From Salinisphaera sp. LB1 (GTDB lineage: Bacteria > Pseudomonadota > Gammaproteobacteria > Nevskiales > Salinisphaeraceae), in assembly GCF_003177035.1 (NCBI RefSeq), contig NZ_CP029488.1, positions 2,914,001 through 2,978,000 of the forward strand: a stretch of DNA of 64,000 nucleotides. Direction: 5' to 3'. The position numbers and the translations under genes were made by a program. Shown piece after piece: positions 16,602-39,695 of the stretch; position 1 is the first letter of the stretch; each line of letters opens with the position of its first letter. The notes under the pieces were generated by a model, which did no database searches, was not told the origin of the DNA, and saw nothing but the letters and a program-made list of their open reading frames with translations.

Positions 16602-16616
16602 TGAAACGACGTTCCA
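16602..16616. promoter_or_regulatory. IclR-type operator candidate, site 1
   Basis: On the minus strand the site reads TGGAACGTCGTTTCA, with one mismatch between half-sites. It differs at one position from site 5 at 30857-30871. It lies in the shared upstream region of the divergent thiolase and nitronate monooxygenase-like genes, and resembles the known IclR consensus TGGAAAT-N-ATTTCCA. Confidence 0.6.
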
Positions 16617-16691
16617 AAATATGGTCAAGCAGTATGTTGAGGGTATGGGTCAGCGTCAAGATCTGCGTGAAGCGCTTAACGGGGCTTGCGC

Positions 16692-17648
16692 ATGTCACTG
16701 AGTGAACGACTTCGCGCCGATATGCGGCTGCCGGTCATCGGGTCGCCGATGTTCATCGTGTCGAACCCGGAGCTGGTCATCGCCCAGTGTACCGCGGGCA
16801 TCATCGGCGCCTTTCCGGCGCTCAATGCCCGGCCGGCCGAGCAGCTGCCGGTCTGGCTCGAGCGCATCACGAATGCCCTGGACGCCGAGCGTGCGGCGCG
16901 TCCGCTGGCCCGGATCGCGCCGTTCGCGGTCAACCAGATCGTGCATGCCTCCAACGACCGGCTGGAACGGGATCTTCGCGCCTGTGCGGATTTCCGCGTG
17001 CCGTTGTTGATCACGAGCCTGCGCGCCCCGCATGCCGCGGTCGAGGCCGCCCACGATTATGGCGGGCACGTTTTCCACGATGTGATCAACGTGCGCCATG
17101 CCGAGAAGGCAATCGAAGCGGGCGTGGATGGCCTGATCGTGGTCTGCGCCGGCGCGGGCGGGCATGCCGGTACGCTGAGTCCGTTCGCCCTGGTTTCGGA
17201 AATCCGTCGGTTCTGGGATGGCCCGCTGGTCCTGTCCGGTGCGATCACGCGCGGCGCGCATATCCTGGCCGCCGAGGCGCTGGGTGCGGACTTCGCGTAC
17301 ATGGGGACGCGTTTCATCGCCACCGATGAAGCCAACGCGGCGGCCGAGTACAAGACCATGGTCACCACATCGAGCGCAAAGGATATCGTCTACAGCAATC
17401 TGTTCACCGGGGTGCACGGCAACTATCTGCGTGGCTCGATCGAGAACGCCGGATTCGACCCGCATGATCTGCCGACATCGGACAAGCAGGCCATGAGCTT
17501 CGGCAGCGACCGCAAGAAGGCCTGGAAGGATATCTGGGGCGCGGGCCAGGGCGTCGGCAATATCGACGCCATCGAGCCGGCGGCCGACGTGGTCGAACAA
17601 CTGGTCGCGGAATACAACGCGGCCCGTCGGCGGCTCGGCGCGCGATGA
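16692..17648 (+). CDS. Nitronate monooxygenase-like FMN protein (NPD family)
   Basis: This 318-residue TIM-barrel protein belongs to the 2-nitropropane dioxygenase/nitronate monooxygenase family. VIGSPMFIVSNPELV near the N-terminus, CAGAGGHAGTLSPFALV in the middle, LSGAITRG and GADFAYMGTRF are the FMN and phosphate-binding segments. Many members in catabolic clusters detoxify nitroalkanes or act as enoyl-type reductases, and the true substrate is often unknown. ATG 16692 is chosen over an in-frame TTG at 16686. It is divergent from the thiolase and shares its operator, which suggests a role in the same acyl-CoA pathway. Confidence 0.85.
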   Translation: MSLSERLRADMRLPVIGSPMFIVSNPELVIAQCTAGIIGAFPALNARPAEQLPVWLERITNALDAERAARPLARIAPFAVNQIVHASNDRLERDLRACADFRVPLLITSLRAPHAAVEAAHDYGGHVFHDVINVRHAEKAIEAGVDGLIVVCAGAGGHAGTLSPFALVSEIRRFWDGPLVLSGAITRGAHILAAEALGADFAYMGTRFIATDEANAAAEYKTMVTTSSAKDIVYSNLFTGVHGNYLRGSIENAGFDPHDLPTSDKQAMSFGSDRKKAWKDIWGAGQGVGNIDAIEPAADVVEQLVAEYNAARRRLGAR

Positions 17649-17791
17649 GCCGCCGACGCCGCGGGCGCGGATGAACGTGCCCGCGGATACCGCTCGCTCG
17701 GGCAACAGGGCCAACTCGAGTCCGGCCGGTGGACATCAGACGACTTGGTTATGTATCACGCTCGACTGGCTGAATAAGCAAGCGCATTTTG

Positions 17792-17820
17792 TCCGCAAAT
17801 GCACGCGAATGAGCGCAAAT
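17792..17820 (-). repeat. 29-bp dispersed repeat, copy 3
   Basis: Read on the minus strand the copy starts ATTTGCGCTCATTCGCGTGC and ends ATTTGCGGA. It is inverted relative to copy 4 (18473-18501). The two flank the maoC gene. Confidence 0.7.
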
Positions 17821-17884
17821 AACAAGGAAGATCACGGCACTGCTGATTTCAGGTGCGCAAGCAATGGCGTCTTTGACTGAACTG

Positions 17885-17912
17885 TGTACATCGTCAAGTC
17901 AGACGATGTACA
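17885..17912 (-). terminator. Hairpin at the end of maoC
   Basis: TGTACATCGTC pairs perfectly with GACGATGTACA (11 bp) around a 6-nt loop. The maoC stop codon (complement of 17899-17901) lies in the loop and first stem base. No T tract follows on either strand, so it is a 3'-end stabiliser or weak terminator. Confidence 0.4.
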
Positions 17913-18357
17913 GGGTCAGGGTCTCGGCGATACAGGCCGGCCTGTCGTGGTTTTCGATCTCGACGGTCACATGACAGCCGACACGGAACGCACCGGGGCC
18001 GCGCGCGATCACGTCACTCAGCCGAACCCGTGCCCGTATCCGCGCGCCGGCCGGCACTGGGTTGATGAAACGCAGGGTGTTCAGCCCGTAATTCACACGC
18101 GTGCCGACACCGCGCACGGTGAAGACTTCGCCGACCAGGCGCGGCAGCAAGGCCAGCGTCAGAAAACCGTGGGCGACCGGCCCGCCGAAGGGTGACTCGC
18201 GCGTCGCGCGCTCGACGTCGACATGGATCCATTGATGATCGTCAGTGGCATCGGCGAAGCGATCGATACGCGACTGATCCACCGTCAACCAGTCGCTCGT
18301 GCCGAGTTCGGTTCCGACACGAGCCTGTAACGCCGCAATATCGTCAAAGACTTGCAT
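17899..18357 (-). CDS. MaoC family dehydratase (hotdog fold)
   Basis: This 152-residue single-hotdog protein should hydrate 2-enoyl-CoA, as R-specific enoyl-CoA hydratases do. The catalytic D-x4-H appears in DATDDHQWIH. The hydratase-2 segment continues with SPFGGPVAHGFLTLALLP. ATG 18357 is used; a TTG at 18369 would add four residues. It follows the etf genes on the same strand after 209 bp that contain repeats. Whether it joins that operon is uncertain. It fits beta-oxidation in the neighbouring catabolic clusters. Confidence 0.85.
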   Translation of the reverse strand: MQVFDDIAALQARVGTELGTSDWLTVDQSRIDRFADATDDHQWIHVDVERATRESPFGGPVAHGFLTLALLPRLVGEVFTVRGVGTRVNYGLNTLRFINPVPAGARIRARVRLSDVIARGPGAFRVGCHVTVEIENHDRPACIAETLTLYIV

Positions 18358-18380
18358 GAGCGATCCCAAGCAAACGCAAC

Positions 18381-20276: not shown

Positions 20277-21899
20277 TCAGAGGTTATAGTAATTCGGCCC
20301 CGAGCCGCCCTCGGGCACGACCCAGTTGATGATCTGGTAGGGATCCTTGATATCGCAGGTCTTGCAGTGCACGCAGTTGGCGGCGTTGATCTTGAGTTCC
20401 GGCTCACCGGCTTCGTTTTCCACCATCTCGTAGACGTTGGCCGGGCAGAAACGCGTGCAGGGGTTGCCGTATTCCTGGGTACAGCGGTCGGTACAGATGC
20501 TCGGGTCTAGCACCTGCAGGTGGACCGGTTGATCCTCGTCATGCTCGGTCTGGGCGTGGTAGACCGAGGCCAGGCGATCGCGCGGGGCCAGGTCGCGTGC
20601 GACGTAATTCTGTGCGTCTTCCGGCGGCGGGGTATCGAGTTGATCGAGTCGTTGCGTGGCTTGCCAGTCGGCATGGTTGGATAACGTCCAGGGCGAGGCG
20701 CCTCGGGTCGCCGTCTCCCAGACCGCATTGAGCAGCCCGGTCCATTGGCCCTTGTTGAAGCCGGGCCGGATGTTGCGGACCCGTTTCAGTTCGGTACCGA
20801 CCTCGGAGGCCCGCAGCGCAGCATCAAAGCCCTCGGCCGTGCCGTGCGCAGCAACATGATCAGCCGCGATCATGCCTGAGCGCATCGCGGTATGGATGCC
20901 CTTGATCTTGGGCACATTCAGCGTACCCGCCGCATCGCCGAGCAGCATCGCACCGGGCATCTCCATCTTCGGCAGTGACTGCCAGCCGCCCTCGACCAAC
21001 GCCCGGGCGCCGGCCGACACGATCTCGCCGCCCTCGAGCATGGGCTTGATCCTGGGATGATGCTTGAGTTGCTGGAAGGCCTCGAACGGGCGCAGCCGCG
21101 GGTCGGCATAGTCCAGGCCCACGACAAAACCGATGGCGATGCGGTTGTCGTCGAGATGATAGACAAAGCTGCCGCCGTAGGTGTCGTTGTCCAGCGGCCA
21201 GCCGATCGTATGCTGCACCAGGCCCGGCTTACACTGGCCTTCGGGCACTTGCCAGAGCTCCTTCAAGCCGATGCCGTAGGTCTGCGGATCGCTGTGCCGG
21301 TCGAGCTCGAAATGCCGGATGAGCTGTTTGCTGCAACTGCCGCGACACCCCTCGGCGAACAGCGTGACGGGGGCGTGGATCTCGATGCCCGGGGTGAAAC
21401 TGTCCTTGGGCTGGCCGGCGCGATTAAGGCCCATGTCCGGCGTGCGCACGCCCTTGACCGCGCCGTCGTCATCGAACAGCGCTTCGGCGGCGGGAAAACC
21501 GGGGTAGATCTCCACGCCCAGCGCTTCGGCCTCGGGCGCCAGCCAACTCATCAGGTTGGCGATGGAGACAATCACATTGCCGGTGTTGTTCTGCTGCGGT
21601 GGTGTGGGCAGCCGTTTCGCGCCGTCGCGGGTGAGCCGCCAGAACTCATCCTCAACCGCATCGACACAGATCGCGGGCGGATCGTCGCGCCAGTCCGGCA
21701 CCAGCTCGTCGAGCGGGCCGGTCTCGATCACCGCGCCGGCGAGATTGTGGGCGCCGACTTCCGAGGCTTTTTCGAGCACGCAGACGTCGGTTTCCGGTGA
21801 TTGCTGCTTGATGCGCATGGCCGCGGCCAGCCCGGCCGGGCCGGCGCCGACGACGAGCACGTCGTAGGCCATTACGTCGCGTTCGGTCTGTTCGGTCAT
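20277..21899 (-). CDS. Electron transfer flavoprotein-ubiquinone oxidoreductase
   Basis: This 540-residue membrane-associated FAD and 4Fe-4S enzyme passes electrons from ETF to ubiquinone. The FAD loop is VVGAGPAGLAAAMR (about residues 16-29). EGCRGSCSKQL lies in the middle, and GDAAGTLNVPKIKGIHTAMRSG (about 325-346) is typical. The C-terminal ferredoxin-like domain has CTRFCPANVYE and CVHCKTCDIKDP, which provide the cluster ligands. It is first of the three ETF genes and follows an SDR gene by 88 bp on the same strand. It couples the acyl-CoA dehydrogenases of this window to respiration. Confidence 0.95.
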   Translation of the reverse strand: MTEQTERDVMAYDVLVVGAGPAGLAAAMRIKQQSPETDVCVLEKASEVGAHNLAGAVIETGPLDELVPDWRDDPPAICVDAVEDEFWRLTRDGAKRLPTPPQQNNTGNVIVSIANLMSWLAPEAEALGVEIYPGFPAAEALFDDDGAVKGVRTPDMGLNRAGQPKDSFTPGIEIHAPVTLFAEGCRGSCSKQLIRHFELDRHSDPQTYGIGLKELWQVPEGQCKPGLVQHTIGWPLDNDTYGGSFVYHLDDNRIAIGFVVGLDYADPRLRPFEAFQQLKHHPRIKPMLEGGEIVSAGARALVEGGWQSLPKMEMPGAMLLGDAAGTLNVPKIKGIHTAMRSGMIAADHVAAHGTAEGFDAALRASEVGTELKRVRNIRPGFNKGQWTGLLNAVWETATRGASPWTLSNHADWQATQRLDQLDTPPPEDAQNYVARDLAPRDRLASVYHAQTEHDEDQPVHLQVLDPSICTDRCTQEYGNPCTRFCPANVYEMVENEAGEPELKINAANCVHCKTCDIKDPYQIINWVVPEGGSGPNYYNL

Positions 21900-22839: not shown

Positions 22840-22874
22840 TCAATAAAAATGGAATGGAATTCCATTTTTATTGA
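22840..22874. promoter_or_regulatory. Perfect 16-bp-arm palindrome containing IclR-type operator site 2
   Basis: TCAATAAAAATGGAAT and its exact complement flank the 3-bp centre GGA. The core 22850-22864 reads TGGAATGGAATTCCA. It lies 64 bp upstream of the SDR-etf run, and its distal arm covers the stop codon of the lipoprotein gene (22868-22870). It could be an operator, and on the same strand also the 3' hairpin of the lipoprotein transcript. Confidence 0.65.
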
Positions 22875-23564: not shown

Positions 23565-25340
23565 CTAGAAGGAATAATTGGCGCTGAAGGCGAAATAATC
23601 GCGGTCCTGGACCGTGCTGTATTTCGTGGTGTTGTAGTTGGTATACGACAGGTCGCCGCCGAGATGGTGGTATTGCAGGCCCAGCCCGACGGTGATCGTG
23701 CGTTGATGCTCTTGGAATGAATTATCGCTGGAAAAGCCGTCCACGCCCTGGCGCAGGGTCAAGCTGGGCTTGAGCGCAAGCGCGCCAATGACATTGTTGT
23801 AGGTGGACTCAAGCGAAATCTGATAGCCCCAGCTGAAATCGGTCACGTAGCCGCCGGCACCGGGTGCGCCGATTCCGAAATTCGTGTGCCGGCCGAAGCG
23901 TATGTCGTGGTGGCTGGGCAGGTTGGGAATCGTTTCGAACGCCGTCTCGGCCGAGGCCACCGTTTTATCGGCGCCGAGCAGATCGGGAATGATGGTGGTG
24001 AAGGTCAGCTCGGCACGCTCCACACCGTAGCGTTTGTAGCCCTGGACGTTCTGGCCGAGACCGATTGAATCCACATAAGCCTGGGTGCCGGCCGGAATGT
24101 TGGGGTTGGCCGGTGAGCCGGTGGCGGATGTGGCGGATGTGGCGGATGTGGCTGATTGGGTGGTCAGGTCCGGGGTGTTGATCTGCAGCGGCATGTTGTC
24201 GACATAGCTCAGATTGAGCGCCAGGTTGCCGATGTTCTGGAAGGTCTTGTCGGCTGTCAGGCCAAACACTCGAATGTCGTTCGGGTAATCATAGTGAAAG
24301 GTCACGGAATTGAAGACCGCCGGCGCGGAAGGGGTCGGTCGGGGGTCGGCGTTCTTGTGCAGCGAGTAATACGGCAGGCGGGCGTTGTAATTGAAAAAAT
24401 ACGCACCGATATGCGCGTTCTGCTGCGCGAACGAGTACTGGAGCTTGAAGCCGTACTGTCCGCCGTTGCTGGCCTTGTTATCCGGGCCACGGCGGAAATA
24501 CAGGCCGTGATCGAGCGCGTAGCGGTTCGGTACCACCACCTGATTGGAGAACGTGGCATAGCATCCGGGCGCGACATTGTCGTAGGTGGCGTAAAACGTG
24601 CCACAGCCGTCGGTGACCGAATGCTGCCAGCTGAACTGGTAGAACGCTTTCATGTCCAGATGCTGCGTCAAGCCCAGGTCGGCGCTGAGCATGCCGGCCG
24701 GGATCAGGTACTGCTGGTAGCCCGAACCCGGTCGATGAAAGGCCGGCAGGTCGATGGCATTCAGCGAACCGAACGAGCCGCGGGTAAACAGGCTGCGGCC
24801 CCACAGCAGCAACTGCTTGCCGAGCTTGAAGCTGACGTCGTGTCCCCGGACATCGAATTTACCGAAGGCGTAGGCTTGCTGGAAGGTGGCGCCATTGAAC
24901 TTGGCGCGTCTGTTGAAACCGTCGTCGCTCAGCGGTGTATTCGGCACATAGCCGTTGGGCACGTTGCCGTGCGCCACCGACTTGTTGTCCTCGAGGTAGT
25001 CTTCCCAGGCCTGGCCGCTGACGAATACCCCGTAGTTGCCATGGCTCAGTTTGACGCTGCCGTAGAGCTGGGCGCTACCCTTCACGAAATCGCCTTTCTT
25101 GTAATTGAGATCGCCATCGTCCGAGACGGCATCATCCGAGCGCCCGCCGGCCCTGTTGCCCGCGAACAGGATGTCGTTGCTGGGCGATTGGGTCCGGATG
25201 GCGCTGCCGGCAATCGCCTTGAGGTTCCAGTCAGCGGACACGCCATGCCCGAGATCGACATTGCCGCCGGCGAGGGCGGGGCCGGCGAATGACAACAACC
25301 CGGCTGCATACAGCCCCCTTTTGCGAAAACCACTGTTCAT
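23565..25340 (-). CDS. DUF1302 family outer-membrane protein
   Basis: This 591-residue protein has a signal peptide ending near GPALAG and a beta-barrel pattern that ends in Phe (FSANYSF), as outer-membrane barrels do. GKQLLLWGRSLFTRGSFG (about residues 171-188) and SADLGLTQHLDMKAFYQFSW (about 223-242) are typical of DUF1302. These proteins are known near genes for steroid, terpene and hydrophobic acid breakdown, where uptake is a likely role. ATG 25340 is supported by AGGAGAG. A four-copy Ser-Ala-Thr repeat lies in a probable surface loop. It is divergent from iclR and upstream of the lipoprotein gene. Confidence 0.82.
   Translation of the reverse strand: MNSGFRKRGLYAAGLLSFAGPALAGGNVDLGHGVSADWNLKAIAGSAIRTQSPSNDILFAGNRAGGRSDDAVSDDGDLNYKKGDFVKGSAQLYGSVKLSHGNYGVFVSGQAWEDYLEDNKSVAHGNVPNGYVPNTPLSDDGFNRRAKFNGATFQQAYAFGKFDVRGHDVSFKLGKQLLLWGRSLFTRGSFGSLNAIDLPAFHRPGSGYQQYLIPAGMLSADLGLTQHLDMKAFYQFSWQHSVTDGCGTFYATYDNVAPGCYATFSNQVVVPNRYALDHGLYFRRGPDNKASNGGQYGFKLQYSFAQQNAHIGAYFFNYNARLPYYSLHKNADPRPTPSAPAVFNSVTFHYDYPNDIRVFGLTADKTFQNIGNLALNLSYVDNMPLQINTPDLTTQSATSATSATSATGSPANPNIPAGTQAYVDSIGLGQNVQGYKRYGVERAELTFTTIIPDLLGADKTVASAETAFETIPNLPSHHDIRFGRHTNFGIGAPGAGGYVTDFSWGYQISLESTYNNVIGALALKPSLTLRQGVDGFSSDNSFQEHQRTITVGLGLQYHHLGGDLSYTNYNTTKYSTVQDRDYFAFSANYSF
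24121..24156 (-). repeat. In-frame 9-bp tandem repeat in the porin gene
   Basis: Four 9-bp units follow each other: three identical GTGGCGGAT and one with a single change. They encode Ser-Ala-Thr four times near residue 400. Copy-number slippage would change loop length without a frameshift. Confidence 0.85.
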
Positions 25341-25846
25341 GGTCGTGCTCTCCTCTTTTCGTTTTTGTCCCGGCATCCTCCGAATGGCATGCCGGTTCTT
25401 TTAAAATGCCGCGCCAGCGATTTCGGCGTCGGGCGAGCAAGGGCTGTTCAAGCAGTTGCTCGGTGCCAGGTATCGCTCGGGCATGGTGAAAATCACCTGC
25501 GCTGTTTTTTTGGAATTTCGTTTTGCAATTCGGATTGGGTCTAAACTGTGCCGCTGATGTCGTCAAGCGGCGCCGACCGCCTCGGTCGACCGACGCAGCG
25601 CGGCGCGAGCGATCTTCGGATGTGTTGTTGAACGCGCCGGGGCGGCCGGAACCCTTGTGGCGGATTGGCTTGCGTTGGCGGTGCGCGGGCGATGGACGTA
25701 TCGTCACGTCTGCCGCAACAGCCGCTCGCGGGCCGATCGTCTGCGACGGATGTCGAATCCCGGCCGGGGGCGTCCAAGGGGCCGGCGATTGAATCTGCGC
25801 TCGCGTTACACGGGCCGGAAAGGGGCGAACTCGAGGGTTCGAAAAC
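25341..25846. other. Divergent intergenic region of porin and iclR
   Basis: This 506-bp region has no credible gene. It contains one IclR-type operator candidate (25511-25525) within an A/T-rich patch that is unlike its GC-rich surroundings. Promoters of both divergent genes are expected near it. I see no clear sigma-70 pair. Confidence 0.6.
25511..25525. promoter_or_regulatory. IclR-type operator candidate, site 3
   Basis: The site reads TGGAATTTCGTTTTG, with a good left half and a degenerate right half. It lies 171 bp upstream of the porin gene and 322 bp upstream of iclR. It would allow autoregulation. Confidence 0.5.
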
Positions 25847-26720: not shown

Positions 26721-26735
26721 TGGAATGCCGTTTTG
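26721..26735. promoter_or_regulatory. IclR-type operator candidate, site 4
   Basis: The site reads TGGAATGCCGTTTTG and lies 102 bp before the acyl-CoA dehydrogenase start. TTGACG at 26741-26746 follows directly and could be a -35 element, so bound protein would sit at the promoter. Confidence 0.55.
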
Positions 26736-26837
26736 CTTTGTTGACGGCCTCTCTGGCGCTGTGTCACTTTGCAGATAAGCACAACACGCCTGACGGCCGA
26801 ATCGGCCAGTCGGGAGGATTCGACGGAGGAGAAGTCG

Positions 26838-30856: not shown

Positions 30857-30871
30857 TGGAATGTCGTTTCA
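30857..30871. promoter_or_regulatory. IclR-type operator candidate, site 5
   Basis: The site reads TGGAATGTCGTTTCA. TTGACG at 30879-30884 may be a -35 element. An extra half-site-like TTGGAATT lies just upstream (30843-30850). It is 110 bp before the acyl-CoA ligase start and marks a new transcription unit after surE. Confidence 0.6.
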
Positions 30872-30980: not shown

Positions 30981-32636
30981 ATGTTCGATCGGCACCATGC
31001 CGTATGGCCCGCCTACCTGCCGCACCGTCTGGCCCTGCCCCAGACCAGCGTGTTCGCCAATCTCGCGATTTCCGCGCAGCGCTATCCGGAGCGTGACGCG
31101 ATCCTTTATTACGGCGCCGCGATGACGTATGCCGCGCTCGAGCGCGAGGCGCTTGCGCTGGCCGGCTATCTGACAGCGCAGGGCGTGGCCCGCGGCGACC
31201 GGGTACTGCTCTATATGCAGAACGCGCCGCAGTACGTCGTCGCCTTCTATGCGATTCTGCGCGCCAATGCGGTGGTGGTACCGGTCAATCCGATGAATCG
31301 CACCGGCGAAATCGAACACTACGCCCGCGATACCGAAGCCCGCCTGTGCCTCTGCGGCCAGGAGCGTCTGGCCGAGGTCACGCCGCTGGTCGAATCCGGG
31401 CTGCTGGACGAGATCGTGGTGACGGCCTACAGCGAGTACGCGCCGGCGGCTTGCGATTTCGAACTGCCGGCGGAGGTCTCGGCACCGTTCGAAACACCGC
31501 GGGCAGCGGGGGTGACCGCCTGGCGCGATGCCATGGCCGCCGGCCACGCGCCGCCGGCGCTTGAAGTCGGCCCCGACGATCTCGCGGTATTGCCCTACAG
31601 TTCCGGCACCACGGGCCAGCCCAAGGGCTGCATGCATACCCACACCTCGGTGATGGCCACGGCGGTGCACAGCGTGGTGTGGAGTTACGGCACTTCCGAG
31701 GGCGTCAATCTCGCCACGCTGCCGTTCTTTCATGTCACCGGCATGCAGAACAGCATGAATGCGCCCATCTATGCCGGCGCGACCCTGGTCATCATGACGC
31801 GCTGGGACCGACGCACGGCGGCCCGACTTATCGAACGCCACCGGGTCGATCGCTGGACCAACATCGTGACCATGGCGGTGGACCTGCTGGCCGATCCCGA
31901 GATCGAGTCCTTCGATTTGTCGAGCCTGACATACATCGGCGGCGGCGGAGCGGCCATGCCGGCCGCGGTGGCCGGCAAACTGCGCGACCTGACCGGGCTG
32001 GATTACATCGAAGGCTACGGTCTCAGCGAGACCATGGCGGCGACTCACATCAATCCGCTCGGGGCGCCGAAAGCCCAGTGTCTGGGCATTCCGGTGTTCA
32101 GTGTCGATGCGCGGATCATCGACCTGGAAACGCAGGCCGAGGTGTCGATCGGCGAGAGCGGGGAAATCGTGTTGCATGGGCCGCAGGTGTGCGTCGGCTA
32201 CTGGAATCGGCCGGAGGCCACGGCTGCGGCCTTCATCGAGATCGACGGCAAGCGATTCCTCCGGACCGGCGATATCGGCCGCTATGACGAGGACGGCTAT
32301 TTCTTCATGGTCGACCGCGTCAAACGGATGATCAACGCCTCGGGCTACAAGGTCTGGCCGGCCGAGGTCGAGGCGTTGATGTACGGCCACCCGGAGATCC
32401 GCGAAGCCTGCGTGATCGCCACACCCGACGCCCGTCGTGGTGAATCGGTCAAGGCCTGCGTCGTGCTGGTCGACGGCGCGACCGCGACCGAGGCCGACAT
32501 TCTGGCCTGGTGTCGCGACAACATGGCGGCTTACAAAGTGCCGCGGGCGGTCGAGATCTGTCTCGAACTGCCTCGCTCCCAGACCGGCAAGGTCATGTGG
32601 CGTCGCCTGCAGGAGGCCGAATGGGAAGACGCATAA
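30981..32636 (+). CDS. Acyl-CoA ligase (AMP-binding), LvaE/PimA-like
   Basis: This 551-residue ANL-superfamily enzyme activates a carboxylic acid to its CoA thioester with ATP. The P-loop YSSGTTGQPKG is at residues 206-216. LPFFHVTGM, GYGLSETMA, TGDIGRYDEDGYFFMVDR and the catalytic Lys of SQTGKVMW (about 537) follow. ATG 30981 has AGGAG 9 bp upstream; starts further upstream would overlap the operator. It is first in a run with the FadB-like gene and two acyl-CoA dehydrogenase genes. The acid could be a dicarboxylate or a hydroxy acid; the sequence does not say which. Confidence 0.9.
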   Translation: MFDRHHAVWPAYLPHRLALPQTSVFANLAISAQRYPERDAILYYGAAMTYAALEREALALAGYLTAQGVARGDRVLLYMQNAPQYVVAFYAILRANAVVVPVNPMNRTGEIEHYARDTEARLCLCGQERLAEVTPLVESGLLDEIVVTAYSEYAPAACDFELPAEVSAPFETPRAAGVTAWRDAMAAGHAPPALEVGPDDLAVLPYSSGTTGQPKGCMHTHTSVMATAVHSVVWSYGTSEGVNLATLPFFHVTGMQNSMNAPIYAGATLVIMTRWDRRTAARLIERHRVDRWTNIVTMAVDLLADPEIESFDLSSLTYIGGGGAAMPAAVAGKLRDLTGLDYIEGYGLSETMAATHINPLGAPKAQCLGIPVFSVDARIIDLETQAEVSIGESGEIVLHGPQVCVGYWNRPEATAAAFIEIDGKRFLRTGDIGRYDEDGYFFMVDRVKRMINASGYKVWPAEVEALMYGHPEIREACVIATPDARRGESVKACVVLVDGATATEADILAWCRDNMAAYKVPRAVEICLELPRSQTGKVMWRRLQEAEWEDA

Positions 32637-32685
32637 CCGGATATTTGCTTCGCCCGGCGAGGGTTTTGCAGCGCAAGGAGTATTC

Positions 32686-34773
32686 ATGAGCGATGTCGTT
32701 TCCTATCGATGCGAGGCGGGCGTCGGCCTGATCGTGGTCGACAACCCGCCGGTCAACGCCCTGGGCCACGCGGTTCGCCAGGGCCTGCTCGAGGCCTTGA
32801 ACGAGGGCCTGGCCGACGAATCCGCCAAGGCGCTGGTGATCATGGGCGATGGCCGCACCTTTCCGGCGGGCGCCGATATCCGCGAGTTCGGCCAGACACC
32901 GAAGCCGCCGGCGCTGCCCGAGGTCATCGATGCAATCGAGGCCAGCGATAAACGAGTGATTGCTGCCGTTCATGGCACGGCCCTCGGCGGCGGCATGGAG
33001 ATCACGCTCGGTTGCGATTATCGACTGGCGTTGGATTCGGCGAAAATGGGGCTGCCGGAGGTTAACCTCGGCCTGCTGCCCGGCGCCGGCGGCACGCAGC
33101 GCCTGCCGCGCCTGATCGGCGCGAAGGCGGCACTGGAAGCAATCGTCGAGGGCAAGCCGATCAAGGCCGCGCGGCTGGCGGAGATGGGGGTCGTCGACGT
33201 GGTAGTGAGCGGCGATCTCAAGACCGAAGCCATCGCCTACGCCCAGAGACTGATCGCTGAGGACGCGCCGCGCCGCCCGGTCAGCGAGCTTTCCGTTGCG
33301 ACAGAAGAAGCCGCTGTCTTCGCCGAGTTCGAGGCCACCATCGCGCGCAAAAAACGCGGCCACCTGGCGCCGTTTCACTGCATCAAGGCGGTCAAGGCGG
33401 CCACCGAGATGGATTTCGCCGCCGGCATGGCGCGCGAACGCGAGCTGTTTGCCGAATTACTCGATTCGCCGCAGTCGGCGGCCCTGCGCCATGTCTTCTT
33501 CGCTGAACGCGAGGTGGCCCGGGTGCCGGGGCTGGCAAAGGATACGCCGCAACGCGAGATCAAGCGCGTCGCGGTGCTTGGGGCGGGCACGATGGGCGGC
33601 GGCATCGCCATGAATTTCCTGTCCGCCGGGATCCCGGTGACGCTGCTGGAAAACAAGCAGGACGCGCTGGATCGCGGCGTGGCGACCATGCGCCGGAACT
33701 ATGAGGCCAGCGCCCGAAAAGGCCGGCTGGATGCCGAACAGGTCGAAGCCAACATGGGCCGGTTGTCGACCACGCTGGACTATGGGGATCTGGCCGAGGC
33801 CGATCTGATCATCGAAGCCGTGTTCGAGAACATGGACGTCAAGAAGACCGTGTTCGGCGAGCTCGATCGGGTGGCGAAGCCCGGGGCGATTCTGGCAACG
33901 AACACCTCGACGCTGGACGTGGACGAAATTGCCGGGGCGACGTCCCGGCCGTCCGACGTGCTCGGCATGCATTTCTTCTCGCCGGCCAATGTCATGAAGC
34001 TGCTGGAGGTGGTGCGCGGCAAGCAGACCGCGGACGACGCGCTGGCGACGGTGATGGCGCTGGCGCGACGTATCGGCAAGGTCGGGGTCGCGGTCGGCGT
34101 GTGTTACGGGTTTGTCGGCAATCGCATGCTGCACAAGCGCCAGGCCCAGGCGGTGGCGCTGGTCAATGAGGGGGCCACGCCGTCCCAGGTCGACCGCGTG
34201 CTTTACGATTTCGGCTTGCCCATGGGGCCGTTTGCGATGGCCGATCTGGCCGGGCTGGACGTGGGCTGGCGCATTCGCGAAGGCCTGCGGGAAACCGATC
34301 CCGCCAACGCCCCGGCGCGCAACTGGATGGATGCGCTGGCCGAGGCCGGCCGCTTCGGCCAGAAGACCGGAGGCGGTGTCTTCGACTACTCCGATGGCGG
34401 CCGTACGCCGGAGCCGTCGGAAGCCACGGCAGCCGAGATCGAAAAATATCGTGCCGAACAGGGCATTACGCCGCGCGAAGTCAGCGACGAGGAAATTCGC
34501 GAGCGCTGTCTTTACGTGATGATCAACGAAGGCGCGAAGATCCTCGAAGAAGGTATCGCCGCGCGGCCGCTGGATATCGACATCGTCTGGATCTACGGCT
34601 ACGGCTTTCCTTCCTACCGCGGCGGGCCGATGTTCTGGGCCGATCGGCTCGGGCTCGAACACGTCCGTGAACGCATCAAGGCATTCCACGAGGACAGCGG
34701 CGATCCGGACTGGCAGATCGCGCCCCTACTCGAAAAACTCGCTGGCGAAGGCAAGGGCTTCGCCGACCTCTAA
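32686..34773 (+). CDS. Bifunctional enoyl-CoA hydratase/3-hydroxyacyl-CoA dehydrogenase (PimF/FadB-like)
   Basis: This 695-residue protein has an N-terminal crotonase domain (residues 1-190: AGADIREFG, the oxyanion-hole GTALGGGMEI, and GLLPGAGGTQRLPRLIG). A Rossmann dehydrogenase domain follows (VAVLGAGTMGGGIAMNF near 298, FFSPANVMKLLEVV near 430) with two C-terminal 3HCDH helices. It does the hydration and NAD-linked oxidation steps of beta-oxidation. AAGGAG lies 5 bp before ATG 32686. The gene order ligase, bifunctional enzyme, two dehydrogenases resembles the Rhodopseudomonas pim operon for pimelate and other dicarboxylates. Confidence 0.92.
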   Translation: MSDVVSYRCEAGVGLIVVDNPPVNALGHAVRQGLLEALNEGLADESAKALVIMGDGRTFPAGADIREFGQTPKPPALPEVIDAIEASDKRVIAAVHGTALGGGMEITLGCDYRLALDSAKMGLPEVNLGLLPGAGGTQRLPRLIGAKAALEAIVEGKPIKAARLAEMGVVDVVVSGDLKTEAIAYAQRLIAEDAPRRPVSELSVATEEAAVFAEFEATIARKKRGHLAPFHCIKAVKAATEMDFAAGMARERELFAELLDSPQSAALRHVFFAEREVARVPGLAKDTPQREIKRVAVLGAGTMGGGIAMNFLSAGIPVTLLENKQDALDRGVATMRRNYEASARKGRLDAEQVEANMGRLSTTLDYGDLAEADLIIEAVFENMDVKKTVFGELDRVAKPGAILATNTSTLDVDEIAGATSRPSDVLGMHFFSPANVMKLLEVVRGKQTADDALATVMALARRIGKVGVAVGVCYGFVGNRMLHKRQAQAVALVNEGATPSQVDRVLYDFGLPMGPFAMADLAGLDVGWRIREGLRETDPANAPARNWMDALAEAGRFGQKTGGGVFDYSDGGRTPEPSEATAAEIEKYRAEQGITPREVSDEEIRERCLYVMINEGAKILEEGIAARPLDIDIVWIYGYGFPSYRGGPMFWADRLGLEHVRERIKAFHEDSGDPDWQIAPLLEKLAGEGKGFADL

Positions 34774-35997: not shown

Positions 35998-37161
35998 ATG
36001 GATTTTTCATACAGCGATGAGCAGCGCATGCTCAAGGACATGGTCGACCGCCTGGTCGCCGAGCAGTACGATTTCGACACGCGCGAAGCCGCGCGTGCCT
36101 CGAGCGCCGGCTATTCGACGCAGATGTGGCAGCAGTTCGCTGAACTCGGCCTGCTGGGCGTGCCCCTGTCGGAGGACGCCGGGGGTTTCGACGGCGGCGG
36201 CGCCGAGTTGATGGTGGTCGCCGAGGGCTTCGGCCGGGCGTTGGTGGTTGAGCCGTATCTCGCGTCCGTGGTGCTCTGTGGCCACCTGATCGATGCGCTC
36301 GCCGACGGCGTACACAAGGCCGAACTCGCCGAGTCGATCATCAGCGGTGAAATGCGCTACGCGCTGGCCTGTCATGAGCCCGATGGCGGCTACGATCCGC
36401 ACTGGATCGCCACCACGGCGCGCGCCGATGGCGACGGCTATGTGCTGGATGGCAGCAAGGCCGTGGTGGCCCATGGCGATAGCGCCGATCGCCTGATCGT
36501 GATCGCCCGCAGTAGCGGTGAACCGGGCGATCGCGACGGGCTGAGCGCTTTTCTGGTCGATGCCAGCGCGCAAGGGGTGGCCCGTCGTGGTTATCCCACG
36601 ATCGATGGCCACCGGGCCGCGGATATCACGCTGGCAAACGTCCGCGTGGGGGGCGATGCGCTGCTGGGCGAAGCCCGGCAGGCGGGGGCCGCTCTGGACG
36701 CGGCGCTCGAACGCGGGGTGATTTATCTCTGCGCCGAGGCCACGGGCGCCATGGACCGGGCCTGTGAACTGACGCTGGAATATCTCAAGCAGCGCAAGCA
36801 GTTCGGTGTGCCGATCGGCAGCTTCCAGGCACTCCAGCATCGCATGGTCGACATGCGGATTGCGCTGGAAAAAGTCCGCGCCCTGACGTTCTGGGCGGCC
36901 TGTTCGCTGGAGTCCGCGCCGGACGAACGCCGGCAACGCATCGCGGCCGCCAAGGTGATGGTCGGACGGGCCGGCCGCCAGGTCGCCGAAGAGGCCATAC
37001 AGCTGTTCGGCGGCATGGGCATGATGGAGGAATCGGCCATTGCCCACTATGCCAAGCGCATCGTCATGATCGACCATTGGCTGGGCGATCATCGTTGGCA
37101 CATGGCCGCGTTCCGCCGCGCGCTTGTCGATGGCGACAATGCGCTGGCGAACGCGGCGTAA
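35998..37161 (+). CDS. Acyl-CoA dehydrogenase, PimD-like (small subunit type)
   Basis: This 387-residue protein starts MDFSYSDEQRMLKDMVDRLV and has GVPLSEDAGGFDGGGAELM, YLKQRKQFGVPIGSFQALQH and AIQLFGGMGMMEE. The central flavin-binding part is weaker than in the previous gene (ACHEPDGGYDP in place of a clear TEP-GSD loop). This is common in the smaller partner of PimC/PimD-type pairs, which are thought to work as heteromers. It starts 20 bp after the PimC-like gene and ends the run. A stem with a short T run follows. Confidence 0.9.
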   Translation: MDFSYSDEQRMLKDMVDRLVAEQYDFDTREAARASSAGYSTQMWQQFAELGLLGVPLSEDAGGFDGGGAELMVVAEGFGRALVVEPYLASVVLCGHLIDALADGVHKAELAESIISGEMRYALACHEPDGGYDPHWIATTARADGDGYVLDGSKAVVAHGDSADRLIVIARSSGEPGDRDGLSAFLVDASAQGVARRGYPTIDGHRAADITLANVRVGGDALLGEARQAGAALDAALERGVIYLCAEATGAMDRACELTLEYLKQRKQFGVPIGSFQALQHRMVDMRIALEKVRALTFWAACSLESAPDERRQRIAAAKVMVGRAGRQVAEEAIQLFGGMGMMEESAIAHYAKRIVMIDHWLGDHRWHMAAFRRALVDGDNALANAA

Positions 37162-37347: not shown

Positions 37348-37938
37348 TCACAAGCCGCCGGTCGGTGGCGACTGCGCCGCGCCAACCGGCAACACGATGC
37401 GGTCGTTGGCGCCGTTCACGATGGCGGCAAAGGCCAGATAGATGGACACTACGGCGAGCATCAACGTCGCGTAACCGCCCAGCACGATACAGATTTCGGA
37501 GTCGAACCAGTGCCCGAACGCGGCCAGCACGAAGCTGACCGTGATATTCAGAAAGAAGAACTGTAGCGCACGCGATTCCTTGAGCGCCCCGAGCCATAAA
37601 GCGAGGGAAACGGTGCCGAACAACAGGAAATACCAGCCGGCGAATGCCGGTGCGACGCCTTTATGAAAGAACAACAAATAAAGCGCCAGTGACCACCAGA
37701 AGGCACCGAAGGCGGTGAATCCGGTAAAGCCCAGCGTATTGCCGCCAACGAACTCCAGGCAACCGGCAATGACCTGGGCGCCACCCCCGAAGGCAAATAC
37801 CACCGCGATCAGTAATCCGATGTTATCCGGCGGGTACCAGCCGGCGTTGATCATGCCCAGCAACCAGGCGGGCAGGGCCGTGGCGAACAGGCCAAGCGGC
37901 GCTGGATCGGCGGTTTGTCGAGTCGGGGCAGTGCTCAT
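37348..37938 (-). CDS. Acetate/succinate permease, GPR1/FUN34/YaaH family
   Basis: This 196-residue protein has six membrane segments and the family motif near the N-terminus (DPAPLGLFATALPAWLLG; consensus NPAPLGL). FTGFTAFGAFWWSLALY and the later YLLLF-like helices also match. Characterised members carry acetate or succinate with protons. The first residue of the family motif is Asp instead of Asn. The gene is convergent with the pim-like run, and an IclR-type operator is 76-102 bp upstream. A link to the pathway, uptake or release of short acids, is likely. Confidence 0.9.
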   Translation of the reverse strand: MSTAPTRQTADPAPLGLFATALPAWLLGMINAGWYPPDNIGLLIAVVFAFGGGAQVIAGCLEFVGGNTLGFTGFTAFGAFWWSLALYLLFFHKGVAPAFAGWYFLLFGTVSLALWLGALKESRALQFFFLNITVSFVLAAFGHWFDSEICIVLGGYATLMLAVVSIYLAFAAIVNGANDRIVLPVGAAQSPPTGGL

Positions 37939-38013: not shown

Positions 38014-38040
38014 GTATTATGGAACAGCGTTCCGTAATAC
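38014..38040. promoter_or_regulatory. IclR-type operator candidate, site 6
   Basis: A 27-bp near-perfect palindrome has 12-bp arms (GTATTATGGAAC and its complement with one mismatch) around AGC. The core 38020-38034 reads TGGAACAGCGTTCCG. It lies upstream of the permease gene on the minus strand. Confidence 0.6.
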
Positions 38041-38165
38041 GCGTGGTGACGAATGGGTTTGAAACCCGGGATAAGGCAGCACTCAATATCTAAAGGCGCG
38101 CCTCCGACTTAACCCCGCTCCTGATCTGGTTTGGCGATTCTCCCTGAAGACGCATGCCGGCTGGT

Positions 38166-38190: not shown

Positions 38191-38229
38191 ACCCGATGAG
38201 CATAGGGGCGGTCGTTCGGCTCTAGCCGT

Positions 38230-38571
38230 TCAGTAGGGGGCGGACATATAGGGCGATTGATACTTGAGCACAGCCGGGCTGTTTGAGCGCTCTCTCTTGA
38301 AACGCTGGATTGTGTGCTCTGACGCCCCGTTGTTGTCAGGCGTGTCGCTGAAATTGTCGGAAAGCGCACCGATCCCAGCCGGCTGCTGGAACGCGAAGGC
38401 GTTTTTGATCTCGAAGGTTCCAGCCTTTTGCTGCGTCGTGCGTTGCGGGTTCGACTGGCTGTCGGTCGCCGTTGAGGGGTTGGCGGCCTGAGCCGAAATA
38501 GTGCCGAGAACCAGGCCGAAGCCGAGGAGGATGGCTGCGCCGGTACGGGTTTTCTGGGCCAGTGTGTTCAT
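38230..38571 (-). CDS. Small secreted protein of unknown function
   Basis: The 113-residue product starts MNTLAQKTRTGAAILLGFGL and has a signal peptide with probable cleavage after AQA (about residue 29). The mature part of about 85 residues is polar, rich in Ser, Asn, Gln and Pro, and has no Cys. No family is recognised. The start at 38571 is chosen because it gives a normal signal peptide; the frame extends to 38637. It is divergent from a LysR gene and has its own terminator, which supports a real expressed gene. Its codon use is less GC-rich than the enzymes nearby. Confidence 0.55.
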   Translation of the reverse strand: MNTLAQKTRTGAAILLGFGLVLGTISAQAANPSTATDSQSNPQRTTQQKAGTFEIKNAFAFQQPAGIGALSDNFSDTPDNNGASEHTIQRFKRERSNSPAVLKYQSPYMSAPY

Positions 38572-38660
38572 GCTCGATACTCTCGTCAATAAATGGCGAT
38601 GCGTGTTTGCTATCGCCGAAGCTAGCTGTTGATGCATACTCTATTGACTTACGTCGAGTG

Positions 38661-38690
38661 AATAAACCGCTAGATATTCATTTGTTTATT
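38661..38690. promoter_or_regulatory. Inverted repeat, candidate LysR-type site
   Basis: AATAAAC and its complement GTTTATT are spaced by 16 bp in an A/T-rich patch. The site lies 15 bp before the LysR gene and 90 bp before the divergent secreted-protein gene. Autoregulation with control of the divergent gene is the usual LysR arrangement. Confidence 0.4.
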
Positions 38691-38705
38691 TAGTTTTATT
38701 GTTGA

Positions 38706-39608
38706 ATGAATCTGCTCAACGCCATGACGACGTTCGTCCGTATTGTCGACGAGGGCAGCCTTGTGGCAGCGGCGAACAGCAGCGGGCTATCGCCGGCCAT
38801 GGTGGGTAATCACCTCCGTGCGCTGGAAGAACGGACGGGGATGACATTGCTCAACCGGACCACGCGCCGTCAGAGTCTGACCGAGTTCGGTCGCCTCTAT
38901 TACCGGCGCTGTGTCGATATCCTCGAGTTGGTCGAAGACACCGACATGCTGGCGCAGCAATCCCAGGCCACGCCGCGCGGCAAGTTGCGGATTACTGCGC
39001 CTCATGCTTTCGGTGCGGATTGGCTCATGCCCGCGTTGACGGATTACACCGCGCAATACCCGCAAGTCACGATCGATCTGGTGGTCGACGATCGGCTTTT
39101 CGACCTCGTCTACGACCAGTTCGAAGCCGCCATCCGGATCGGCGAACTGGCCAACGAGGATCTCGTGGCCCGGCCGCTGTCCCCGTTCCAATCGCTACTC
39201 TGCGCCGCGCCGGGCTATATTGCAGCCCACGGGCAGCCGGCCGAACCGTCCGAACTGGTCGATTACGACTGCCTGCTCTATACCTACGCGCGCCAGATTC
39301 ACGCGGATCTTTCCTCTTATGTGCTGAATCTGGCCGGCCCGGCGGGCGCGGTGGATGTCACCGTCACCGGGCGGGTCTACGTCAACAGCGCCGCGGCGCT
39401 GCGCCGGGCGGCCTTGTCCGGTATGGGCATCACATTCCTGCCGGAACGTGCCGTTGCCGATGACATTGAACGCGGCGATCTGGTGAACGTGCTGCCCGAA
39501 TACCGTTCGCCCGAACGGCCGCTGCATCTGCTGTATCGGCGTGACCGGCGCCTTTCGCCCAAACTGCGCAGCTTCATCGATTTCGTGCTCGCGCGCTTCG
39601 GGCGTTAG
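38706..39608 (+). CDS. LysR family transcriptional regulator
   Basis: This 300-residue protein has the LysR winged helix-turn-helix at residues 1-60 (FVRIVDEGSLVAAANSSGLSPAM split at residue 21, then HLRALEERTGMTLLNRTTR). The periplasmic-binding-like effector domain covers about 90-295 (GKLRITAPHAFGADWLMPAL). SLTEFGRLYYRRC links the two. Its target could be the divergent small secreted-protein gene or the downstream gcdH gene. The effector is unknown. It is followed after 210 bp by gcdH, which has its own operator, so it is probably a separate transcript. Confidence 0.92.
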   Translation: MNLLNAMTTFVRIVDEGSLVAAANSSGLSPAMVGNHLRALEERTGMTLLNRTTRRQSLTEFGRLYYRRCVDILELVEDTDMLAQQSQATPRGKLRITAPHAFGADWLMPALTDYTAQYPQVTIDLVVDDRLFDLVYDQFEAAIRIGELANEDLVARPLSPFQSLLCAAPGYIAAHGQPAEPSELVDYDCLLYTYARQIHADLSSYVLNLAGPAGAVDVTVTGRVYVNSAAALRRAALSGMGITFLPERAVADDIERGDLVNVLPEYRSPERPLHLLYRRDRRLSPKLRSFIDFVLARFGR

Positions 39609-39680
39609 CCCTCGGTGGGTGCGATCGGACGCGGCCGCAAGCGGTCCTCGAGACGAACTCATACATAAGCCGCATTAATG

Positions 39681-39695
39681 CGAAATGCAATTTCG
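39681..39695. promoter_or_regulatory. IclR-type operator candidate, site 7
   Basis: CGAAATGCAATTTCG is a perfect palindrome with 6-bp arms around GCA. Its GAAAT-N3-ATTTC core is nearest of the seven to the E. coli IclR consensus. It is 124 bp before the gcdH start. Confidence 0.5.

What the first reader, a model, noticed from the sequence alone, without database searches (positions are those of the whole stretch)
16602..39695. Seven IclR-type operator candidates define a putative catabolic regulon
Near-palindromes with core TGGAAY-N3-RTTYCA occur at 16602, 22850, 25511, 26721, 30857, 38020 and 39681. All are in gene starts: thiolase and nitronate monooxygenase, SDR-etf run, porin and iclR, ACAD10/11-like run, ligase-fadB-pimCD-like run, permease, and gcdH. 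Sites 1 and 5 differ at one base. The only IclR family gene in the window (25847) lies in their midst. E. coli IclR binds a very similar pattern. If correct, one regulator controls uptake, activation, beta-oxidation and electron transfer for a single acid over 23 kb.
Basis: partly seen in the sequence, partly recalled or inferred. Interest (0 to 1): 0.8.

Follow-up and report, generated by a model that had tools for sequence, protein, structure and literature searches.

The report
IclR-type regulon for acid breakdown
Seven short mirror-image DNA sequences in a Salinisphaera bacterium are very probably the binding sites of one control protein that governs a whole set of genes for taking up and burning an unusual fatty or hydroxy acid; it is a solid new example of a known type of control system.

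Summary
The strict core fits three places in the 4.14 Mb Salinisphaera genome, all in this window. A matrix-free search of relatives' upstream regions finds GAAAC-N3-GTTTC as the commonest palindrome (11 of 26 regions; random draws at most 5). In 12 congeners sites recur before orthologous operon heads (acad1 12 of 12; ligase 11 of 11 where mapped, plus one Alcanivorax) but before 0 of 54 operon-internal orthologs. The consensus, TGRAAYNNNRTTYCA, fits the published IclR-family group 2 motif. The IclR ortholog is in all 12 and is the only IclR_C protein found in three of them; PsrA is absent from all 12. At the best-conserved promoters the operator lies 3-8 bp upstream of a TTGAC -35-like element, which suggests activation (inferred). 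The run includes an ACAD10/11-type kinase and dehydrogenase with the diagnostic residues, so a 4-hydroxyacyl substrate is likely. Binding, direction of control and substrate are untested. New member of a known kind.

The parts
16602..16616 (.). Operator 1, between thiolase (-) and nitronate monooxygenase (+): TGAAACGACGTTCCA
   Evidence: the same intergenic region has a site in G006 and G002, but the thiolase has none in 4 other relatives
22850..22864 (.). Operator 2, upstream of the SDR-etfQO-etfB-etfA-maoC run: TGGAATGGAATTCCA
   Evidence: site within 300 bp of the sdr1 ortholog in 9 of 10 relatives where mapped; 6 bp from TTGACC-N16-TAGAAT
25511..25525 (.). Operator 3, between the DUF1302 gene (-) and iclR (+): TGGAATTTCGTTTTG
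   Evidence: site before the porin ortholog in 2 of 2 relatives where mapped, G006 and G002
26721..26735 (.). Operator 4, upstream of the ACAD10/11-type dehydrogenase run: TGGAATGCCGTTTTG
   Evidence: site before acad1 in 12 of 12 relatives; 5 bp from TTGACG
30857..30871 (.). Operator 5, upstream of the acyl-CoA ligase run: TGGAATGTCGTTTCA
   Evidence: site before lig in 12 of 12 relatives where the gene was on the fetched stretch; 7 bp from TTGACG
38020..38034 (.). Operator 6, upstream of the SatP-type permease: TGGAACAGCGTTCCG
   Evidence: the one relative where satP was mapped, G006, has CGGAATTGTGTTTCG
39681..39695 (.). Operator 7, upstream of the acyl-CoA dehydrogenase/zinc-ADH pair: CGAAATGCAATTTCG
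   Evidence: 18.7 bits with the matrix from relatives; the one relative where this gene was mapped, G006, has CGAAACGATGTTTCG
25847..26686 (+). iclR: IclR-family regulator, proposed binder of all seven sites
   Evidence: PF09339 HTH_IclR and PF01614 IclR_C; orthologs of 62-95% in 12 of 13 congeners
15326..16528 (-). thiolase (acetyl-CoA acyltransferase)
   Evidence: PF00108/PF02803; TIGR01930 over its cut-off; NF005494 602.7 bits, just under its cut-off of 615
16686..17648 (+). nitronate monooxygenase-like flavoprotein
   Evidence: PF03060
17899..18369 (-). MaoC-type hydratase
   Evidence: PF01575
18567..19517 (-). etfA, electron transfer flavoprotein alpha
   Evidence: PF00766/PF01012
19514..20260 (-). 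etfB, electron transfer flavoprotein beta (start set by homology)
   Evidence: PF01012; start from the translation and alignments
20277..21899 (-). ETF-ubiquinone oxidoreductase
   Evidence: PF05187/PF21162
21988..22809 (-). SDR oxidoreductase 1, head of the etf run
   Evidence: PF13561
22868..23533 (-). small protein of unknown family, downstream of the DUF1302 gene
   Evidence: no Pfam family at E<=1e-5; best E 0.048
23565..25376 (-).
   Evidence: PF06980
26838..28052 (+). acad1: ACAD10/11 (LvaC)-type dehydrogenase; start set by homology (ORF opens at 26769)
   Evidence: E 1.2e-146 to ACAD11 chain 8v3u with the R..HCMR and catalytic Asp positions kept
28083..28850 (+). SDR oxidoreductase 2
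   Evidence: PF13561
28868..29950 (+). aph: phosphotransferase of the LvaA/ACAD11 kinase-domain type
   Evidence: PF01636; E 1.1e-77 to ACAD11 chain 8v3v, HGDF and N kept
29991..30779 (+). SurE-type phosphatase
   Evidence: PF01975
30972..32636 (+). acyl-CoA ligase (start set by homology)
   Evidence: PF00501; NF006181 855 bits, cut-off 705
32437..34773 (+). FadB-type hydratase/3-hydroxyacyl-CoA dehydrogenase (longest ORF; true start not settled, probably after 32636)
   Evidence: PF02737/PF00378/PF00725
34796..35977 (+). acad2, PimC-like acyl-CoA dehydrogenase subunit
   Evidence: TIGR03204 513 bits, cut-off 624
35998..37161 (+). acad3, PimD-like acyl-CoA dehydrogenase subunit
   Evidence: TIGR03203 378 bits, cut-off 653
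37348..37938 (-). SatP-type acetate/short-acid permease
   Evidence: PF01184; NF038013 114 bits, cut-off 50
   Evidence: PF02771/PF00441; none of the 17 NCBIfam models listed is over its cut-off
41008..42042 (+). zinc-type alcohol dehydrogenase, next in the run
   Evidence: PF00107/PF08240

Best explanation
The seven palindromes are operators of the IclR-family protein encoded at 25847-26686, and together they make one regulon of about 20 genes. Shown by sequence: the sites are conserved before operon heads and lacking before most operon-internal genes, they occur in every genome examined that has the iclR ortholog, and at the best-conserved promoters they sit at a nearly fixed short distance upstream of a -35-like element. 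Inferred: a dimer (or a pair of dimers) of IclR binds the 15-bp palindrome centred about 50 bp upstream of the transcription start, directly upstream of TTGACG, and changes transcription when a pathway acid or its CoA ester binds the C-terminal domain. The site leaves the -35 free and several of these promoters have poor -10 hexamers, so activation is my first choice (about 0.6) over repression (about 0.4). The controlled pathway takes up an acid, makes its CoA ester, phosphorylates a 4-hydroxyacyl-CoA (APH kinase), eliminates the phosphate (ACAD10/11-type dehydrogenase), completes beta-oxidation (PimCD-like dehydrogenase, FadB, MaoC, thiolase) and passes electrons through ETF and ETF-QO. Sub-confidences: real shared operators 0.97; IclR is the binder 0.88; activator 0.6; 4-hydroxyacyl-type substrate 0.55.
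For: Exact core at 3 places in the genome, all here. Without any matrix, GAAAC-N3-GTTTC is the commonest 5-base-arm palindrome in 26 upstream regions of acad1, lig and sdr1 from 10 congeners (11 regions; 50 random draws of 28 pieces reach at most 5). Matrix from 44 distinct sites of 11 relatives: 7 of 7 window sites at >=14 in 24 kb against 3 hits in 400 kb. Sites before acad1 in 12 of 12 congeners, lig in 12 of 12 with the gene on the stretch (11 Salinisphaera, 1 Alcanivorax), sdr1 in 9 of 10; 0 of 54 for aph, surE, acad2, acad3, etfA, etfB and maoC at >=12. In Alcanivorax DG881 the genes beside iclR differ, yet a site lies between iclR and its divergent neighbour (20.8; no such hit in 400 kb). 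G001, without the ortholog, has no aph match and 3 scattered exact matches, 2 inside genes. In G009, G010 and G013 the ortholog is the only IclR_C protein found. Consensus agrees with published IclR group 2 TGRAACAN1-2TGTTYCA and KdgR RWWGAAACGNCGTTTCAKKA (PMC8222616). PRPTVSR in the HTH is identical in 15 of 15 ortholog rows and in 0 of 8 distant homologs. Operator 3-8 bp upstream of TTGAC: acad1 12/12, sdr1 9/9, liv-type run 8/8. ACAD11 diagnostic residues kept.
Against: No binding or expression data. The 44 training sites were themselves picked in relatives with the window's matrix, so that test is not fully independent (one search is). Thiolase has a site in only 2 of 6 relatives where mapped; porin, satP and the gcdH-like gene were mapped only in the nearest one or two relatives. 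Among internal genes sdr2 (1 of 11) and ETF-QO (1 of 5) do have a site in one relative each. 22 of 58 site-gene pairs lack the TTGRC element within 18 bp, including thiolase, porin and satP here and 7 of 12 lig promoters; the promoter scan by itself finds no more promoter-like sites than shuffles (3 against 2.7). Eight IclR homologs of 39-46% identity show no site above 11 bits in the 3-4 kb around them. The 4-hydroxy substrate rests on homology and residues, not on assay.
Confidence: 0.82

Rival explanations
1. The sites are operators, but of another regulator: a PsrA-type TetR fatty-acid repressor, the LysR protein at 38706, or another IclR paralog.
For: PsrA controls fatty acid degradation in Shewanellaceae and other gammaproteobacteria (PMC5343134, passages; its GAAAC-type half-sites are recalled). 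This genome holds one TetR_C_30 (PF17939) protein. A LysR gene lies between sites 6 and 7. Most congeners have further IclR_C proteins.
Against: PF17939 was found in 1 of 14 genus genomes, only this one, while all 12 congeners with the sites lack it. lysR was mapped only in G006 among the fetched stretches. In G009, G010 and G013 the ortholog is the only IclR_C protein found, and the sites are present (G009 and G010 are 87% and 81% complete, G013 99%). A TetR of another type or another regulator is not excluded.
Confidence: 0.1
2. The IclR protein binds these sites but as a classical repressor, lifted by a pathway intermediate, rather than as an activator.
For: The closest motif classes are those of KdgR and E. 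coli IclR (PMC8222616 Table 1), which act as repressors (IclR so named in that paper; KdgR recalled). The sdr1 promoter has good -35 and -10 boxes (TTGACC-N16-TAGAAT, 10 of 12) that would not need an activator.
Against: In 36 of 58 pairs the operator lies upstream of, not over, a TTGRC element, with nearly constant spacing per gene. The best NCBIfam match is the PcaR/PcaU/PobR subfamily (133 bits, under its cut-off of 285), which includes activators (recalled).
Confidence: 0.38
3. The palindromes are chance matches picked out by a reader looking for a pattern.
For: Within the window alone 7 of 100 shuffles give as many 2-mismatch matches. Strong matches occur inside genes elsewhere in the genome, two of them scoring above four of the seven sites.
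Against: Genome-wide clustering of exact matches, the matrix-free search and conservation before orthologous operon heads.
Confidence: 0.02
4. The regulon serves ordinary fatty acids or a branched/cyclic (PimCD-like) acid, and the ACAD10/11-type module only handles a side product.
For: The ligase is a long-chain-type enzyme (NF006181 855 bits) and the dehydrogenase pair is PimC/PimD-like. Relatives have liv-type ABC and DctP-type transporter genes beside sites, which suits other acids too.
Against: acad1 has the most constant operator (12 of 12), and in one other genus of the order (G035, G043) an IclR homolog of 43% identity lies beside homologs of acad1 and aph.
Confidence: 0.4

Closest known systems
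IclR-family group 2 motifs and regulogs (Suvorova and Gelfand 2021, PMC8222616)
   Same: Motif TGRAACAN1-2TGTTYCA has the same arms and an N3 spacer; the paper lists Liv and Dct transporter subunits among co-regulated genes, types seen here beside sites in relatives
   Different: Salinisphaera and Alcanivorax do not occur in the main text (its supplements, with the genome list, were not seen); the paper finds mainly aromatic and sugar metabolism and says members generally regulate themselves and one or two adjacent operons
KdgR regulon of gammaproteobacteria
   Same: Nearly the same half-sites (RWWGAAACGNCGTTTCAKKA)
   Different: The KdgR model scores 53.5 bits against a cut-off of 275, and the genes are beta-oxidation genes, not pectin genes
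E. coli IclR
   Same: TGGAAATNATTTCCA, similar arms; same protein family
   Different: 61.8 bits against a cut-off of 380; no glyoxylate-bypass gene among those mapped in the run
lva operon of Pseudomonas putida and mammalian ACAD10/11 (PMC12440821)
   Same: Kinase plus HCMR-type dehydrogenase plus acyl-CoA synthetase for 4-hydroxyacyl-CoA
   Different: Here joined with SDR, SurE, FadB, PimCD-like, ETF genes and an IclR regulator; the type of LvaR is recalled to be different
PsrA/FadP fatty acid degradation regulons (PMC5343134)
   Same: One regulator over many fatty acid degradation genes
   Different: TetR family; PF17939 absent from 13 of 14 genus genomes

Membership tests
IclR-family transcription factor | N-terminal HTH_IclR plus C-terminal IclR_C domain, about 250-280 aa | tested here: met
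   PF09339 53.7 bits (cut-off 22), PF01614 63.6 bits (cut-off 24), 279 aa
IclR-family group 2 regulon | Conserved TGRAACAN1-2TGTTYCA-type palindromes upstream of own and neighbouring operons | tested here: met
   the inner A..T positions of the published consensus are weak here
IclR-family group 2 regulon | Direct binding of the IclR protein to the palindromes | not testable with these tools
   needs EMSA or footprinting
IclR-family regulon | Tandem sites 18-22 nt apart (predicted for 94 of 181 published groups; common, not defining) | tested here: not met
   no such pair among the operators listed; the closest separate operators before sdr1 in G009, G010 and G013 are about 109-114 nt apart
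KdgR, IclR, PcaR/PcaU/PobR models | NCBIfam score over the curated cut-off | tested here: not met
   53.5/275, 61.8/380, 133.4/284.75 bits
ACAD10/11-LvaA/LvaC 4-hydroxyacyl-CoA module | Dehydrogenase with Arg (R626), HCMR motif and catalytic Asp (D753, mouse ACAD11 numbering) | tested here: met
   [14 protein letters not shown] and LADGPDEV aligned to 8v3u; residues named in PMC12440821
ACAD10/11-LvaA/LvaC 4-hydroxyacyl-CoA module | Kinase with catalytic Asp (D220) and Asn (N225) | tested here: met
   HGDFRIGN aligned to HGDFKLDN
ACAD10/11-LvaA/LvaC 4-hydroxyacyl-CoA module | Activity on 4-hydroxyacyl-CoA | not testable with these tools
   needs enzyme assay
PsrA regulon | PsrA-type protein (PF17939) present with the sites | tested here: not met
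   1 of 14 genus genomes
PimCD pimeloyl-CoA dehydrogenase | NCBIfam equivalog score over cut-off | tested here: not met
   513/624 and 378/653 bits: PimCD-like only

The most novel reading that the evidence does not exclude
This IclR protein is a dedicated activator and sensor for the phosphorylation-elimination route of 4-hydroxy acids (or gamma-lactones), a kind of regulator that my paper searches did not show for ACAD10/11-like pathways, and it commands the whole chain from outer-membrane uptake to ubiquinone reduction, with a SurE phosphatase as an unrecognised extra step.
Probability: 0.35. Interest if true: 0.55.

Novelty: new member of a known kind. Interest (0 to 1): 0.42.

Why it matters
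It gives a well-supported regulon with a testable regulator, operator and promoter geometry in a genus for which my searches 'IclR + Salinisphaera' (0 papers) and 'Salinisphaera + regulon' (1 paper, unrelated by title) found no description in the held library. It links a regulator to a bacterial ACAD10/11-type 4-hydroxyacyl-CoA module, which could lead to the natural substrate of such enzymes. It also shows that a reading without tools found real operators.

Tried and rejected
Window-only chance test was too weak to decide; replaced by genome-wide exact counts and tests in relatives. The mismatch listings are cut off and were not used for counts; the count of TGRAAYNNNRTTYCR comes.

PsrA rival: PF17939 searched in 14 genomes. 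LysR rival: lysR mapped only in G006 among the stretches. IclR paralogs: PF01614 finds only the ortholog in three genomes that have the sites; other congeners do have paralogs, and G004, G011 and G012 have one of 43-45% identity that I did not scan.

Distant IclR homologs (39-46%): L020, L021 and L136-L141 (plus aph-centred L079-L081) scanned; no site above 11 bits.

Alternative reading of site 7 at 39686 (TGCAATTTCGTTTTA): the G006 site supports 39681.

Limits of my own counts. The lig and fadB rows used the longest ORFs (30825, 32437) and so looked at the wrong upstream stretch; for lig I use, for fadB I make no count (one search shows a site before fadB in G004). The 0 of 54 leaves out sdr2 (1 of 11), ETF-QO (1 of 5), hyp (0 of 2), adh (0 of 1) and fadB. 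The training sites were picked with the window matrix at >=13; score thresholds were chosen after seeing the window. The binomial value rested on a cut-off list and is replaced. In one search the 58 rows were chosen by hand (G011 left out as nearly identical to G012; one row per gene direction), the element counted was TTGAC or TTGGC, and the label 'liv-type run' rests on Pfam for G003 and on gene order and size for the others. In one search G006, G011 and Alcanivorax were left out.

Paper searches that led nowhere. Of the papers: PMC8222616 outline, passages, the whole Results section and section 4; PMC12440821, PMC5343134 and PMC3223726 passages (the last not used); PMC11342911 search listing only.

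Full report
Where it is. The window is bases 2,914,001-2,978,000 of a 4.14 Mb one-contig genome. The nearest named relative of its IclR protein is Salinisphaera hydrothermalis C41B8, 95% identical over 279 residues; two Alcanivorax records follow at 64%. The genome is therefore a Salinisphaera, by inference.

The observation. All seven near-palindromes are present at the stated places. Inside the window this alone is not impressive (22 matches with up to two mismatches against 12.7 expected; 7 of 100 shuffles reach that). Across the genome it is: the exact core is found at three places only, all in this window and within 14.3 kb (backward control 1).

Gene map. Pfam and gene order place the sites before apparent operon heads: thiolase/nitronate monooxygenase (site 1), SDR-ETF-QO-etfB-etfA-maoC (site 2), DUF1302 gene and iclR (site 3), ACAD-SDR-APH-SurE (site 4), ligase-fadB-ACAD-ACAD (site 5), SatP-type permease (site 6), ACAD-ADH (site 7). 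Of the genes mapped between 15326 and 42042 the only run without a site is the lone lysR at 38706.

Tests in relatives. I fetched the iclR neighbourhood of 12 congeners (G002-G013) and had two Alcanivorax loci. (a) With the window's seven sites as a matrix, many of the best hits lie within about 160 bp of the nominal starts of the same operon heads; others lie farther from iclR or the porin gene, before unmapped genes, or, more weakly, inside genes. By gene, sites of score >=12.8 lie before acad1 in 12 of 12, before lig in 12 of 12 cases where the gene was on the fetched stretch (11 Salinisphaera and Alcanivorax DG881), and within 300 bp of sdr1 in 9 of 10 (the exception, G004, has one at 356 bp). 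In 400 kb of the own genome 4 positions reach 12.8, and 0.5% of 1200 pieces of 330 bp hold a score of 12. Against this, thiolase has a site in only 2 of 6. The operon-internal orthologs aph, surE, acad2, acad3, etfA, etfB and maoC have none, 0 of 54 at >=12; sdr2 has one in 1 of 11 (G002, where it is parted from acad1) and ETF-QO in 1 of 5 (G004). (b) A second matrix from 44 distinct sites of 11 relatives (own genome, G006 and G011 left out; sites picked with the first matrix, so not fully independent) gives all seven window sites 14.7-20.1 bits: 7 hits at >=14 in 24 kb against 1 in the other 40 kb and 3 in 400 kb of the genome. (c) With no matrix at all, among 26 upstream regions of acad1, lig and sdr1 in 10 congeners the commonest palindrome with 5-base arms is GAAAC-N3-GTTTC (11 regions, all three genes); 50 random draws of 28 pieces reach at most 5 for any palindrome.

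Which regulator. The iclR ortholog (62-95% identity) is in 12 of 13 congeners; the one without it, G001, has no aph match, and its three exact motif matches lie on three contigs, two inside genes. In Alcanivorax DG881 the genes on the other side of the iclR intergenic region are different (aldehyde dehydrogenase, metal-dependent hydrolase), but a strong site (20.8; no such hit in 400 kb) still lies in that region, and another before the ligase. The published comparative study of the IclR family gives a group 2 motif TGRAACAN1-2TGTTYCA, and KdgR RWWGAAACGNCGTTTCAKKA (PMC8222616); the sites here have these arms and the N3 spacer. The stretch PRPTVSR of the HTH is identical in 15 of 15 ortholog rows and in none of 8 distant homologs, which also lack the motif nearby. 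PsrA-type proteins (PF17939) are in 1 of 14 genus genomes, only this one. In G009, G010 and G013 the ortholog is the only IclR_C protein found, so paralogs cannot be the general binder; two of these genomes are incomplete. A regulator of another family is not strictly excluded.

Promoter geometry. At acad1 (12 of 12), sdr1 (9 of 9), the liv-type transporter run of relatives (8 of 8) and 5 of 12 ligase promoters, a TTGAC element starts 3-8 bp after the operator on the gene side; over all 58 hand-chosen site-gene pairs TTGAC or TTGGC starts within 18 bp on the gene side in 36 and on the other side in 6. In the 9 sdr1 promoters it is followed after 16 bp by TAGAAT or TAAAAT; in the others mostly by a poor -10 with a TG before it (read by eye). 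Taking TTGAC as the -35, the operator centre is near -50. That is a usual place for an activator and leaves the core promoter free; I infer activation with modest confidence. Thiolase, porin and satP promoters do not show this pattern, and a plain consensus scan finds no more promoters than shuffles.

What is controlled. acad1 matches ACAD11 at E 1.2e-146 and keeps the arginine, the HCMR motif and the catalytic aspartate that PMC12440821 describes for ACAD10/11 and LvaC; aph matches the ACAD11 kinase domain and keeps its catalytic Asp and Asn. A SurE gene stands after aph here; surE was mapped in 11 congeners and confirmed by Pfam between aph and the ligase in G003. The ligase is of a long-chain type; the other dehydrogenase pair is PimCD-like but under the PimC/PimD cut-offs. 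I conclude that a 4-hydroxyacyl-CoA is on the path; whether it is the starting acid or an intermediate is open. Some relatives have a liv-type ABC transporter run beside iclR, with a site (Pfam in G003; by gene order in others).

Distant sites. Of 22 stretches of relatives around exact matches away from the iclR stretch, a site of >=15 bits is intergenic in 15, inside a called gene in 4, and below 15 in 3. Two of the 15 hold sdr1 itself on another contig. In G003, G005, G007 and G008 the site stands between a divergent pair: a solute-binding protein (DctP by Pfam in G005 and G008, by gene size in the others) and a 664-680-residue protein without Pfam match in the two tested. So the regulon may be larger in some species. 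In the own genome, of seven distant matches inspected, five lie inside well-supported ORFs and two in doubtful ones; four further exact matches or weaker ones were not inspected in full.

Verdict. It is a new, well-supported member of a known kind: an IclR-family group 2 regulon, large for the family and tied to an ACAD10/11-type module. Binding, direction of control and substrate remain to be tested.

Noticed in passing
G003, G004, G005, G007, G008 (e.g. L052, joined stretches): A second palindrome, GAACG-N2-CGTTC (mostly GAACGATCGTTC), stands 22-24 bp or about 70-103 bp (start to start) from the IclR-type operators at acad1, lig, sdr1 or fadB in five congeners; none in the window or in 400 kb of its genome. 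It may mark a co-regulator in that group of species.
   Followed up: partly
window 29991-30779: A SurE-type phosphatase gene follows the APH kinase gene here, and surE was mapped in 11 congeners; a phosphatase beside a 4-hydroxyacyl-CoA kinase may have a role in the pathway.
   Followed up: partly
L107, L110, L114, L122: Four relatives have an operator between a DctP-type gene and a divergent 664-680-residue protein with no Pfam match (two of four tested) and no NCBIfam match (one tested).
   Followed up: partly
L020, L021, L136-L141: Eight IclR homologs of only 39-46% identity: six lie beside a gene 54-72% identical to acad1, lig, acad2 or the gcdH-like gene, the other two beside general dehydrogenase-type matches of about 31%; none has this motif nearby. 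A wider IclR clade seems tied to this pathway with another operator.
   Followed up: partly
L142 (genome 67283-67624): This genome alone among 14 of its genus has a TetR_C_30 (PsrA-type) protein; no operator-like site of 8 bits or more lies in the 3.3-kb locus.
   Followed up: partly
window 29209-29223, inside aph: A weak operator-like sequence (CGGCACACCGTTCTA) has counterparts inside aph in 6 relatives; probably a conserved protein motif, not an operator.
   Followed up: no
window 10885-12600: A 571-residue ORF with good coding statistics has no Pfam match at E<=1e-5.
   Followed up: no
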